Part shown: piece by piece, positions 31,901-40,900 of the stretch
Position numbering within the stretch: the stretch's first letter is position 1
Layout: each line of letters starts with the position of its first letter
Assembly (NCBI GenBank): GCA_032622095.1
Contig: CP136065.1
Span: forward strand, 156,865,577 to 156,929,576
Direction of reading: 5' to 3'
From: Siphonodentalium dalli
Lineage: Eukaryota > Mollusca > Scaphopoda > Gadilida > Siphonodentaliidae
DNA length: 64,000 nucleotides
Made by a program: the position numbers and the translations under genes
Notes under the pieces: model-generated
The model's input: only the letters and a program-made list of their open reading frames with translations
The model's database searches: none
What the model was told of the DNA's origin: nothing

Positions 31901-34900
31901 TTACATGATTAGGCTCCTGTGTGGTTACAATATTAGGTACCTGTGTGGTTACATGATTAGGCTCCTGTGTGGTTACATGATTAGGCCCCTGTGTGGTTAC
32001 ATGATTAGGTCCCTGTGTGGTTACATGATTAGGTCCATGTGTGGTTACATGATTAGGCCCCTGTGTGGTTACATTATTAGGTCCCTGTGTGGTTACATTA
32101 TTAGGTACCTGTGTGGTTACATGATTAGGTCCATGTGTGGTTACATGATTAGGCCCCTGTGTGGTTACAATATTAGGCCCCTGTGTGGTCACAATATTAG
32201 GTACCTGTGTGGTTACATGATTAGGTCCCTGTGTGGTTACATGATTAGGTACATGTGTGGTTACAATATTAGGTCCCTGTGTGGTTACATAATTAGGTCC
32301 CTGTGTGGTTACTAATATTAGGCCCCTGTGTGGTTACATGATTAGGTCCATGTGTGGTTACATATGCCCCTGTGTGTTTACATGATTAGGCCCCTGTGTG
32401 GTTACATGATTAGGCCCCTGTGTGGTTACATTATTAGGTCCCTGTGTTACATGATTAGGTCCATGTGTGGTTACATGATTAGGCCCCTGTGCGGTTACAT
32501 TATTAGGTCCCTGTGTGGTTACAATATTAGGTACCTGTGTGGTTACATTATTAGGTCCCTGTGTGGTTACAATATTAGGTACCTGTGTGGTTACATGATT
32601 AGGTCCCTGTGAGGTTACATGATTAGGCCCCTGTGTGGTTACACTATTAGGTACCTGTGTGGTTACATGATTAGGTCCCTGTGTGGTTACATGATTAGGT
32701 CCCCGTGTGGTTACAATATTAGGTACCTGTGTGGTTACATGATTAGGTCCCTGTATGGTTACAATATTAGGCCCCTGTGTGGTTACAATATTATGCCCAT
32801 GTGTGGTTACATGATTAGGTCCCTGTGTGGTTACATGATTAGGCCCCTGTGTGGTTACAATATTAGGTGCCTGTGTGGTTACACGATTAGGTCCCTGCGT
32901 GGTTACATGATTAGGTCCATGTGTGGTTACATGATTAGGTCCCTGTGTGGTTACATGATTAGATCCCTGTGTTGTTACATTATTAGGTCCCTGTGTGGTT
33001 ACATGATTAGGCCCCTGTGTGGTTACATGATTAGGCCCCTGTGTGGTTACAATATTAGGTACCTGTGTGGTTACATGACAAGACCCCTGGGTGGTTACAT
33101 GATTAGGCCCCTGTGTTACATTATTAGGTATTAGATTTTACAACGACGCACATGTTCACATTTCCCACCAAAACTCAATTATATTTTATAACACATTGGC
33201 TAAAACTCTGTTCTATAGCAGCAGTCATCACTATAGTTGTTGGACTAATGCAGACTATTGAACAAGCTACGCGTTCTGATTTCGTTGAAATATTTCGCTA
33301 CCATTCACATTACACCGCTATAAATATCCCCTGTAGATAAACTCTGCAGTATGACGTCACAGCACAAATAATTTTACGATTGACAGAAAATAATATTTTT
33401 TTACCCAAAATATGTATCTCCTATAATAAATATCTTGGACACTGAAACTAATGGTTATATATTTCTTGCTTGGAAGATCCTAGAAGTCGTTTTAAAAATC
33501 GGTACGAAATACATCGAGTACGCGCACTTGTCAAATGCCAATTAATGGCGATTATATATTTGGACCAATCGTGTGAGTCCTTTCGCTATAACAGCGATTG
33601 AAAGGTAACATACATTCTTTTTAATTTCTTCCTCCTGTGTGTTTGATGCATTTGACCAAGTGCGCGGGGAGGGAATGTTGATCCCAACTGGGAGGGCCCT
33701 TACTGTGTTCAGTGTCCAAGATATTTATTATAGGAGATACATATTTTGGGTAAAAAAATATTATATCTCCGTCAAATATATCTTGGACACTGAAACTAAT
33801 GGTTATAATTAGAATTCTTGAAGAGGAGGAGGCCACGAGGCAGATAATCCGACTATGTCCATGAAACCACATCCTTTACCAAAAAGATTTCTTGGTAGAC
33901 ATGTGCCAAAAAATAGATCATTGTGTCCCATATGTAATAGTTCAGATAAACTCAAAAACAACTGAGCCTCCTAAAAGGAAACACCACGTACTTCATGTGC
34001 ACTACTAGTAATGATCACAGGGTGAAGGTGTCCAGGATAAACATTAGTCATAGGCAAGGGAGATAACTCATTTGTTCATGTACCTAATAGAATAAAGGAA
34101 CCTACCCCCCTTAGAGGATGAAGCAGCACTAGCACGATGTTGACTGGCCCACAATACATGCAAAAGGGGGCACCGACGGGAAACACGGTTATGACCCCCC
34201 CGCCAGAAAAGCTGAATCAATACTCAGAATGGATCTCTCAAAAGGAGTCAACGCTCAGTGCGGTATGACTGACTTGACAGTATTTGGAGCCCGACCGAGA
34301 GACCCAGGGGAGATATGAGAAACCGTTGGGCCCAGACCAATGGGGGGGACCAGGGATACACCAGGAAAACATGACTGAGTTGAGCACTGGAAATCATGTC
34401 CATGGAAAGAAAATGGAAAGATTGCCTGCCTCTGGTACACCAAGCCAAGTAACTGGAAATTGAAGTGTACGGTCAACCAAGGAGAGGAACTAATACCGCT
34501 AATGGAACACTGTCTGATCATACGGCCAATCTGTGATGCAATGAACCGGCCTACATGGTTTCAAAATAAATGTGGAACTTAGTTTAATATCGTACGTCAG
34601 GTGGTGGTATAGGGAACCCATACCGTAGGTTAGCAGAAAGGTACAAAAACTGTGATAACCCGCCACCTGGTATGCTCAAGCACCGATGGGCATGCGGCAA
34701 TAATTGTGAAATGTCGCAAAGGGGAGATCGCTAAATCGGATTAGAATTAGAATCACACCTGCCAAGTGATGTTAAACACTCGGCCCGAGTGATAACATAG
34801 AATAGGAAAATATTCTTGGTTCAACGTCGGTGCTGTGACAAATACGATAACAAAATGGACTACATACATGACGCCTAGACACCAATGAAATGCTGATACG

Positions 34901-37900: not shown

Positions 37901-40900
37901 AAAAATCCCGACGAGAACCCGAATGACGCTAAAGAGCATCGGTTTTTTCTATTGTTTTATGCAAACAAAAACGATATTTGTTCGAAGTGATTCTCGTAAA
38001 TAAAACAAAATTGAAATATTTGTTAATGAAAATATCCACCCACGGACTACTGTCATTAATAAGACAGTATTGTAGAATAAAAGATTGTTGAACAATTGTA
38101 AAACTAAATTCCGAAAATAGGAAAACATGTGCGTAGTGCACGAAATTAGGCAACTGCGTGTTGCCGTTCGTAATATCGGAAGAGAAACGTTCATGAGAAA
38201 TGAACAGATAAAAAATGTGACTTATCTTGCGAATAGAAGAAATTAAATAGAATGTATTTTACCTTTCAATCGCTGTTATAGCGAAAGGACTCACACGATT
38301 GGTCCAAATATATAATCGCCATTAATTGGCATTTGACAAGTGCGCGTGCTCGAGGTATTTCGTCCTGATTTTTAAAACGACTTCTAGGATCTTGCAAGCA
38401 AGAAATATATAACCATTAGTTTCAGTGTCCAAGATATATTTGACGGAGATATATCCTTTCAGTTTCATTTTCATGGAAGCTACTTGAAATTCTAGGAAAT
38501 ACTTAATTCAATTCTCCTTGCTAGATGCTTTTTACTGTTTAGTACAATTATACCTGTCGGAATCTTATTGTAAGTTATAAATTTGTAAACACTGTAACTC
38601 GTAGCTTGTTCATTTATTTAGTCTTCACTCATACGGCAGTCTTACGTGCGTAATTACATGATTAATGATCTGGATACCATCAACAAAATTAATGCACCCA
38701 CGGAAATTATCGACTTGGGTAACATACTTAACTTTGGATTGCTGTGTGATTATCTCAGGTGCAAGGAAGTGGCTACTTTTCAGTGACAAATAACAAAATA
38801 TTTTTGCCCGACAAGACGAACCATGATCTTCCCGTCGAGTTATATGTTTCCCCAATACGGAATCATTAAAATCCCCCTGGCGAAAATCCTGCATAATCAA
38901 GGTGACTAATGGATGAACAATACTAAACATCACCAACTTCAACTGGGGAACTTCAATCTGATCCTAGGCCTCCCAAAGAAGTTGAGTCTTGAGCAGAATG
39001 AAGTTCCCAGAGGGTGAATTTGGTGGCGCTAGCCCACATTGCAGGATAGCGTCACTAATTCACCCTCTGGAAACCTCATTCTGCAAATGACAGACACACT
39101 ATTTGCAGACATGCTACTCTTTTGATACAGGTGCTGCCAGTGATGCAGTCTCCATCTACATCCCAGAATGATTTCAATTTGTACAGTAATGCCCTAAATA
39201 ATCGACTCCATAACCACAGCAGAATTATGGGTGACTTTTCAGGATTTAGTCGGAAATATGGCTTGTTGCCATTCATCGGAAAGCTCTCAGTGAGAGCTTT
39301 CCAATGAATGGCAACAAGCCATATTTCGATTATTTAGGGCATTATAAGTACATTCATTCCAAACTCACCTCAGCTCTAAACATTTCAAGATTCTCCTCTT
39401 TGTCTCTCACAACCTGAGCCATCTCGGCATCTTTACTCTTTATTTGATTCTGTATGGAATTAGAATGCAAACGTTAACTATTTTCAAACAAAACAAACAA
39501 ATTTGAAACTTATACCTTACAAGGCTTTTGATAGTCCCCCGCATAACTTAGTTTTAGCAAAGATGGAAGCTTATGACCTTGATGAATCCGCTCCAGAGAT
39601 GGTCAAAAACTATTTTACTAATTACAAGCAACAAAATGTTGATGTTAGTGAGTGGGGAATAATATTAAGCGAATGAGTCAATGACACTGCAGCTCATCTT
39701 GAAAAGGTGATACGGTCATTCAGTAGTCACTGGAGTGATAAGGAATGCGGAAAGTTGAAATGTTTAAGTAATATCAGAGGTCAACCTGAAGAGCCATATG
39801 ATGTTTGGGATCAACTGGATGAAAAATGCTGGCTGTAGGGCATGCCAAAGTACAGTAATGCTCTAAGTAATTGATTCCTTAACCACAGCAGAATTATGGG
39901 TAACTTTTCAGGATTTAGTCGGAAATATGGCTTGTTGCCATTCATCGGAAAGTTCTCGGGAGAACTTTCCGATGAATGGCATCAAGCCATATTTCCGACT
40001 AAATCCTGAAAAGTTACCCATAATTCTGCTGTGGTTAAGATGTCGATAACTTAGAGCATTACTGTATTTAGTCATGCAAAGCATAAAATCCAAGATAGCT
40101 GACAGCAGTCATGTTTTTTATCGAAAATCGTTTGATATCTCCCATCTTGAGATCATCCTAAACATGCCTGTAAATATTCAAAACATTTCTGATAAATTCA
40201 GGCTGCAGGGTGTGCCGATGGATTCAAATTTGAAAATCCAAGATGGCTGCAGGCGGCCTTGTTTTTTTAACAAATTTCGAAAAACATTGATGGCTCTGAT
40301 TTAGTGGATTTCCCAGAAGATCCATATGAAATTTGGTGACGATCGGATAAGGGATGTGGTCTGTAGGGTGTGTCATAGGATTTAGTCATGCAAAGAGTAA
40401 AATCCAAGATGGCTGCCTGTGGCCATGGTCTTCATCTAAAATCATTTAAATTTGATGGCTCCTATCTAGAGACGATTCTAAACAATGCTGTAAATTTTCA
40501 AAACAATTCTCCAATAAATGCGGGCTGTAGGGTGTGCTGATGAAATCAATTTTTTGACATCGGTAGGCATATAATAACATTCGAATACCCTAGGACCCCT
40601 GACCTGAGTCCATACCCTGGTGGTCAGTTTCGCTCTCAAGAAAATAGTTTAGACCAAACAAAAGTGTTATCTATATAATGTTTATACAGCCATAATATGA
40701 TGAGGATGATGGCCCCTATGACCTCTAACTTGAAACACATTACCATATATCATATAAAAGACATTAAGTAGCCCTCAATAAAATGGTTTCACACATTACA
40801 ATGTTTTACAAGTAGCTTGGACGCTAAAATCCATAACCTGCAATGTTAATTTTCTAAGCACTCTGTGGCCCCTAAAATTTAATCAACGATGACAATATGA

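What the first reader, a model, noticed from the sequence alone, without database searches (positions are those of the whole stretch)
33393..38452. 5 kb element with nearly identical 187 bp inverted ends and foreign GC-rich cargo
The ends are far more similar to each other than copies of other repeats here, so it looks young. A nested second inverted pair on the left, and a short derivative at 48440, suggest a transposon with internal rearrangement. The cargo has no recognised transposase and is compositionally unlike the surroundings. This is the best candidate in the window for an undescribed element family.
Basis: partly seen in the sequence, partly recalled or inferred. Interest (0 to 1): 0.7.

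Follow-up and report, generated by a model that had tools for sequence, protein, structure and literature searches.

The report
DIRS-type jumping element without enzyme genes
This 5-kb stretch carries the special end signals of a DIRS retrotransposon (a copy-through-RNA jumping element that moves as a circle) but none of the recognisable enzyme genes, so it probably moves by borrowing another element's enzymes.

Summary
The repeats are real, but they are not a DNA transposon with a "nested rearrangement". They match the published terminal anatomy of a DIRS1-like tyrosine-recombinase retrotransposon lying on the minus strand at 33390-38453: inverted terminal repeats (195/202 identical), a 23-nt extension at one end, and an internal complementary region (33708-33807) made of the perfect complement of one outer end (57/57) fused to that of the other (46/46). 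The halves overlap by exactly 3 nt, the DIRS "circular junction". A 17-nt core is shared by both repeats and both halves. Because this region copies both ends, the repeats belong to one element. The interior (33808-38235) gives no credible Pfam match in six frames (no reverse transcriptase, RNase H, methylase or recombinase) and no ORF clearly beyond chance once its tandem array is thinned. A GC-rich, T-poor core with a 117-bp tandem repeat fills much of it. Best reading: a non-autonomous DIRS-type retrotransposon mobilised in trans, lying between two RAD50 exons of what is probably an animal genome. A diverged 158-bp relative without the internal region sits at 48458-48615. No genome-wide test was possible. 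Known kind of element, unusual variant, moderate interest.

The parts
33390..38453 (-). whole element, non-autonomous DIRS1-type retrotransposon; sense strand taken as minus because the internal complementary region lies at the 3' end in DIRS1-like elements
   Evidence: anatomy compared with PMC3266345 (passages)
38236..38453 (-). left terminus (5' in sense): inverted terminal repeat; 38438-38453 is the diverged outer part, 38236-38437 the conserved part; begins TAT in sense
33413..33631 (-). right inverted terminal repeat (3' in sense); conserved part 33430-33631, 195/202 identical to the left one
33390..33412 (-). right extension (rE), 23 nt found only at this end and in the right half of the internal complementary region; ends TAT in sense
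   Evidence: alignment; definition in PMC3266345
33762..33807 (-). left half of the internal complementary region (lICR), perfect complement of the outer left terminus 38408-38453
33708..33764 (-). right half of the internal complementary region (rICR), perfect complement of the outer right terminus 33390-33446
33762..33764 (-). 3-nt circular junction (ATA in sense) shared by the two halves; complementary to the terminal trinucleotides 33390-33392 and 38451-38453
33430..33446 (+). 17-nt core ATATCTTGGACACTGAA, present exactly at four places of the element: 33430 (+), 33708 (-), 33778 (+), 38421 (-)
   Evidence: 6 matches at up to 3 mismatches in the window, 0.37 expected
34000..36989 (.). GC-rich, T-poor cargo core, no recognised protein domain
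35539..35998 (.). tandem array, 117-bp unit, 3.9 copies, 91% matches; diverged single copies at 36071-36180 and 36865-36974
36990..38235 (.). AT-rich part of the cargo next to the left terminus, CpG observed/expected 1.25 (window left and right of the element 0.67 and 0.63)
34764..35129 (+). cargo piece related to window 15550-15912 (about 69% identity over 372 columns)
48458..48615 (-). 158-bp diverged relative with both termini (CAT...TAT in sense) and no internal complementary region seen

Best explanation
This is a non-autonomous DIRS1-type retrotransposon, inserted on the minus strand between exons of a RAD50 gene. Shown: its cis anatomy (inverted repeats, right extension, two-part internal complementary region with a 3-nt overlap) and the lack of any recognised enzyme domain. 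Inferred, from the published DIRS-1 model: the left repeat drives a transcript that lacks the extreme ends. A reverse transcriptase supplied by an autonomous DIRS relative elsewhere in the genome copies it. The internal complementary region serves as template or splint, restoring the missing ends and joining them over the shared trinucleotide into a circle. The partner's tyrosine recombinase then inserts the circle by recombining that trinucleotide with an identical one in the target, leaving no target duplication. The cargo is then passenger sequence, the DIRS counterpart of the large coding-free derivatives known for LTR retrotransposons.
For: Inverted repeats 195/202. Internal region 57/57 and 46/46 with a 3-nt overlap; ungapped complementarity ends at 33390 and 38453. 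The order in sense, left repeat - cargo - lICR - rICR - right repeat - rE, is that given for DIRS1-like elements in PMC3266345 (passages). Sizes (rE 23, diverged repeat part 16-17, conserved part 202) fall in that paper's ranges (9-75, 9-36, 31-304), and ICR halves of 46 and 57 resemble its table rows. That paper's short motif of 10 nt or more shared by both repeats and both ICR halves is present as a 17-mer. A scan of the whole window for exact 20-nt junctions of this geometry gave 22 rows: ten of the 20 printed mark this element, ten come from a palindromic repeat family at 30.3-40.0 kb, two were not printed. No Pfam match above a cut-off in six frames of 33808-38235, best E 0.067. Diverged versions of both termini also bound 48458-48615, so such ends inserted more than once. 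The left flank resembles the outer left terminus before the trinucleotide (TTGACAGA-AAATA against TTGACGGAGATATA), a score reached by 25 of 1811 window 15-mers ending in ATA: a weak hint that the target resembled the recombination site.
Against: No autonomous partner was seen; only 30 kb of the rest of the window was searched for domains, and no genome is held. No second copy of the whole cargo, so it is not shown that the cargo travels with the ends. I had no DIRS sequence as a positive control for the Pfam scan. DIRS Gag is poorly conserved (recalled), so an unrecognised ORF1-like product cannot be excluded: a 261-codon minus-strand frame exists (reached in 3 of 500 shuffles), but it spans the tandem array, and with three array units removed the longest minus frame (192 codons) is reached in 47 of 500. 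Seven differences in 202 nt of the repeats against none in 103 ICR columns is uneven. The terminal trinucleotide is TAT, while 23 of the 28 elements of PMC3266345 begin and end with NTT. On the plus strand the core is A- and G-rich, which by itself says nothing for transcription from the minus strand.
Confidence: 0.88

Rival explanations
1. A once-autonomous DIRS1-like element whose coding region has decayed beyond recognition, so that the cargo is dead Gag-RT-YR sequence and not a passenger.
For: Interior size (4.43 kb) is close to that of coding DIRS1-like elements (LgDIRS1 4680 bp in all, PMC3266345). Two long minus-strand frames exist.
Against: The ends are 96.5-100% alike, so the insertion looks young; decay of RT, RNase H and YR past any Pfam trace would have to precede the last transposition, which makes the element non-autonomous anyway. 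The 117-bp array and the strand-biased base composition are not what a decayed pol gene would be expected to show.
Confidence: 0.08
2. A DNA transposon with long inverted ends and an internal rearrangement, for example an undescribed cut-and-paste family.
For: Long inverted repeats, no retrotransposon domain recognised, and a short derivative with both ends.
Against: A rearrangement does not predict that the nested arms are perfect complements of both outer ends, fused with a 3-nt overlap that matches both terminal trinucleotides. No target duplication flanks the element beyond the shared ATA: flanks GACAGAAA and TCCTTTCA.
Confidence: 0.03
3. Two independent insertions of a 202-bp repeat that happen to flank GC-rich sequence.
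For: No copy of the same cargo between the same ends is known elsewhere; no genome to test.
Against: The internal region beside one repeat contains perfect copies of the outermost 46-57 nt of both repeats, including the 23-nt extension unique to one of them.
Confidence: 0.01

Closest known systems
DIRS1-like retrotransposons (DIRS-1 of Dictyostelium; LgDIRS and AcaDIRS of molluscs)
   Same: Inverted terminal repeats with diverged outer part and conserved inner part, right extension, internal complementary region in two halves overlapping by 3 bp, no target duplication (PMC3266345 passages; PMC5633606 passages).
   Different: No recognisable Gag, RT/RNase H/MT or YR gene; terminal trinucleotide TAT rather than the frequent NTT; GC-rich cargo with a 117-bp array.
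SIRE, the truncated non-autonomous derivative of VIPER in Trypanosoma cruzi
   Same: Non-autonomous derivative of a tyrosine-recombinase retrotransposon (PMC6681497 passages).
   Different: SIRE is short (185 + about 30 + 220 bp by that passage), made of VIPER ends, and VIPER has split direct repeats, not inverted repeats with an internal complementary region.
LARDs, large coding-free derivatives of LTR retrotransposons
   Same: Several kilobases of non-coding cargo between intact cis signals, mobilised in trans (recalled; the category is named in PMC8498967 passages).
   Different: LTR class with direct repeats and a DDE integrase (recalled); here inverted repeats and an inferred circle plus tyrosine recombinase.
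TOC1 of Chlamydomonas (recalled, not retrieved)
   Same: Recalled as a coding-poor member of the tyrosine-recombinase retrotransposon group.
   Different: PAT-like split direct repeats, green alga (recalled).

Membership tests
DIRS1-like retrotransposon | inverted terminal repeats | tested here: met
   195/202 identical in inverse orientation
DIRS1-like retrotransposon | internal complementary region in two halves, complementary to the start of the left and the end of the right terminus, near the 3' end | tested here: met
   46/46 and 57/57, order lICR-rICR next to the right repeat (definition)
DIRS1-like retrotransposon | 3-bp circular junction where the halves overlap, matching the terminal trinucleotides | tested here: met
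   33762-33764, ATA in sense; ends 33390-33392 and 38451-38453
DIRS1-like retrotransposon | right extension present only at one terminus and in its ICR half | tested here: met
   23 nt, 33390-33412
DIRS1-like retrotransposon | no target site duplication; one copy of the trinucleotide in the empty site | tested here: inconclusive
   no duplication seen in the flanks; no empty site available to confirm (one search found no second copy of the joined flanks in the window)
DIRS1-like retrotransposon | genes for tyrosine recombinase and RT/RNase H/methyltransferase | tested here: not met
   six frames of 33808-38235 against Pfam-A up to E 10: no such domain; so it is filed as a non-autonomous element with DIRS1-type cis signals, not as a DIRS1-like element proper
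DIRS1-like retrotransposon | circular DNA intermediate and RNA-mediated copying | not testable with these tools
   needs RNA and extrachromosomal DNA data
DNA transposon with terminal inverted repeats | target site duplication | tested here: not met
   no duplication in the flanks beyond the shared ATA
DNA transposon with terminal inverted repeats | DDE transposase, own or a partner's | tested here: inconclusive
   no transposase domain in the interior; a partner elsewhere in the genome could not be tested

The most novel reading that the evidence does not exclude
A trans-mobilised DIRS-type retrotransposon family carrying several kilobases of non-coding or captured, strand-biased cargo, together with ultra-short 158-bp relatives that have both DIRS termini but no internal complementary region. 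The short ones would have to spread by another route, such as recombinase acting on DNA circles, so the family would show which cis parts DIRS copying and insertion truly need.
Probability: 0.3. Interest if true: 0.6.

Novelty: new variant of a known kind. Interest (0 to 1): 0.42.

Why it matters
The role of the internal complementary region rests on a model from 1985 and 2005 that PMC5633606 (passages) calls experimentally not fully proven. A natural element that keeps all these cis signals with no recognisable enzyme gene separates signal from protein and is a ready-made test substrate. It also shows how a DIRS derivative can be missed: searches that rely on RT, MT or YR coding profiles, such as the one in PMC3266345, would not find it. 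In my nine paper searches (titles and abstract starts, plus passages of eleven papers) I found no description of a coding-free DIRS1-type element with an intact internal complementary region, but the library lacks most subscription journals, and Repbase was not searched.

Tried and rejected
Whole-genome search for further copies: no genome is held. Terminus patterns: 0 matches in viral contigs and in GTDB genomes. Cargo-unit patterns: 0 matches in viral contigs and GTDB genomes. GC-rich core against phages and plasmids, distant mode: no match, so a phage or plasmid source is not supported; bacterial chromosomes were tested only by the exact pattern. The 192-aa minus-strand frame in viral contigs: 9 stretches matched a pattern, 0 confirmed. 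RNA families: 0 in the window. tRNA: 0.

Coding potential of 34000-37014: the longest frames are 160 (+) and 261 (-) codons, reached in 12 and 3 of 500 shuffles, but both span the 117-bp array. With three array units removed they are 124 and 192 codons, reached in 81 and 47 of 500. The 25 variable columns (of 117) of four array units fall 10, 9 and 6 over the three codon positions of either long frame, which is no clear sign of protein selection. Protein coding is not supported, not excluded.

RNA editing as cause of the T-poor strand: against the relative at 15550-15912, T in the relative is G, C or A in the cargo 18, 13 and 13 times, and the reverse changes number 8, 5 and 7. This is not the mainly T-to-C pattern that A-to-I editing of the sense RNA would leave, and the direction of change is not polarised. 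Rejected as unsupported.

Other cargo relatives in the window: besides 15550-15912 the best of the further rows was 47 columns to 19826-19872, E 0.002; the reversed-cargo control reached E 0.12 at best.

Empty site: the joined flanks find no second copy in the window.
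Full report
Observation. The inverted ends exist and far exceed chance. The conserved arms 33430-33631 and 38236-38437 differ at 7 of 202 positions. Two further inverted pairs involve a 100-nt block at 33708-33807: its left part is the perfect complement of 33390-33446 (57 of 57), its right part the perfect complement of 38408-38453 (46 of 46), and the two parts overlap by exactly three bases, 33762-33764. Ungapped complementarity stops outside 33390 and 38453, so these are taken as the element ends. In 100 shuffles the longest exact inverted repeat was 14 nt at most, against at least 69 nt observed, where the script stopped counting.

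What it is. This geometry is the published definition of DIRS1-like termini. [quoted passage not shown] For 28 annotated elements it gives conserved repeat parts of 31-304 bp, diverged parts of 9-36 bp and right extensions of 9-75 bp. The element here has 202, 16-17 and 23, with complementary halves of 46 and 57. That paper also notes a motif of at least 10 nt shared by both repeats and both halves; here ATATCTTGGACACTGAA occurs exactly at those four places (6 places at up to 3 mismatches in the window, 0.37 expected; the other two are 48583 with one mismatch, in the short relative, and 44682 with three, where I saw no terminus on reading). Against the paper's majority, the terminal trinucleotide is TAT and not NTT (23 of its 28 elements). 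Since the internal region lies at the 3' end in DIRS1-like elements, the sense strand is taken as minus.

A scan of the whole window for exact 20-nt junctions of this kind gave 22 rows. Ten of the 20 printed describe this element. The other ten printed come from a palindromic repeat family at 30.3-40.0 kb that satisfies the rule by being palindromic. The last two rows were not printed.

What it lacks. The interior 33808-38235, six frames with stops read as X, gave no Pfam match above a cut-off; the best was E 0.067 to an unrelated DUF. No reverse transcriptase, RNase H, methyltransferase, tyrosine recombinase or DDE transposase was seen. I had no DIRS sequence at hand as a positive control for sensitivity. 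Frame lengths are unremarkable once the 117-bp array is thinned. So the enzyme genes that define an autonomous DIRS1-like element were not found, and the membership test fails on that row. What remains is a non-autonomous element with complete DIRS1-type cis signals.

The cargo. A core at 34000-36989 is GC-rich (0.50) and T-poor (0.194) on the plus strand, against 0.363 (sd 0.025) and 0.308 (sd 0.021) in 217 overlapping 1-kb windows outside about 30.7-38.5 kb; AAA occurs 98 times and TTT 16 times. It holds a 117-bp tandem array at 35539-35998 and two diverged single copies of that unit. A stretch of 366 nt (34764-35129) is related, at about 69% identity, to 15550-15912, which is AT-rich and where no DIRS core motif was found; the reversed-cargo control gave nothing comparable. 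So at least part of the cargo is related to sequence of this same genome, and "foreign" is not supported. The AT-rich part next to the left terminus (36990-38235) has CpG observed/expected 1.25 against 0.67 and 0.63 left and right of the element, which could mark a promoter region; that is inference.

Setting. Translated window blocks match RAD50: the zinc-hook exon at about 54.1-54.2 kb, minus strand (Pfam E 7.9e-7; residues 74-123 of PDB chain 5gox_A, E 0.0048), and the C-terminal Walker B exon at about 4.76-4.91 kb, minus strand (residues 1205-1254 of 9q9h_A, E 2.1e-18; Pfam alone gave E 0.055, below its cut-off). The element therefore sits between two RAD50 exons, in the gene's own orientation if its sense strand is minus. 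I did not map the exons in between. That the host is an animal, and the molluscan look of the repeats, are recalled impressions, not tests. Domain scans covered the interior of the element and six other 5-kb blocks (30 kb); 10001-14900, 19901-33807, 48501-52000 and 57001-64000 were not scanned.

The short relative. At 48458-48615 both termini recur, diverged: one end 89% over 55 columns to 38398-38452, the other aligned to the 37-nt outer right terminus with score 37, the best of 1260 tiles scored across the window outside the element (next place 28). It is 158 bp in all, and I saw no internal complementary region on reading it. It suggests that such ends inserted more than once. How an element without the internal region would spread under the DIRS model is open; it may simply be a deletion product.

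Target. The bases before the left ATA resemble the outer left terminus before its ATA (TTGACAGA-AAATA against TTGACGGAGATATA). 25 of 1811 window 15-mers ending in ATA score as well. This weakly suggests that the target resembled the recombination site; it was noticed after the fact and is one site only.

Mechanism. From PMC5633606 (passages): the DIRS-1 sense transcript lacks a small part of the left and most of the right terminal repeat; the internal region is thought to template the missing ends; circular DNA has been shown in one gene-deletion strain; the tyrosine recombinase is thought to insert the circle; the model is not fully proven. For this element the cis parts are shown; transcription, copying in trans, circle formation and insertion are inferred. 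Age: 3.5% difference between conserved repeats and none in the 103 internal-region columns suggest a fairly young insertion; the unevenness may be chance or may mean that the repeats already differed when inserted. PMC9210276 (passages) reports a few substitutions or indels between the two repeats in Xenopus families.

Novelty. Non-autonomous derivatives of tyrosine-recombinase retrotransposons are known, for example SIRE from VIPER (PMC6681497 passages). DIRS elements are known from molluscs (PMC3266345 passages; PMC10294476 passages; PMC6238403 passages). None of nine paper searches turned up, in the listings and the passages I opened, a coding-free DIRS1-type element with an intact internal complementary region; that is a weak negative, because Repbase and most subscription journals are not held. 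I rate it a new variant of a known kind.

Noticed in passing
window 54106-54204 (-) and about 4762-4911 (-): RAD50 zinc-hook and Walker B exons about 49 kb apart on the minus strand, so much of the window is probably RAD50 introns full of repeats.
   Followed up: partly
window 33380-33392 against 38440-38453: The left flank of the insertion resembles the element's own outer left terminus up to the ATA; 25 of 1811 window 15-mers ending in ATA score as well. Possible target preference of the recombinase.
   Followed up: partly
window 30234-30450, 39182-39327, 39840-40077, 43147-43262, 63905-64000: A palindromic repeat family; two copies have arms over 100 nt, 92-95% complementary, with 1-2 nt between the arms, probably a fold-back or MITE family.
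   Followed up: no
window 30735-33116: About 100 copies of a 24-bp minisatellite ending about 270 bp from the element's left edge.
   Followed up: no
window 9998-12227, 14098-14826, 26598-27264, 28143-28958: Arrays of 150-170-bp units, three of them ending in ACGG/ACAG microsatellites; this resembles Helentron-type non-autonomous elements of bivalves (recalled).
   Followed up: no
window 15550-15912: Relative of part of the cargo with CpG observed/expected 1.46 in an AT-rich setting and no recognised ends; its nature is unknown.
   Followed up: partly
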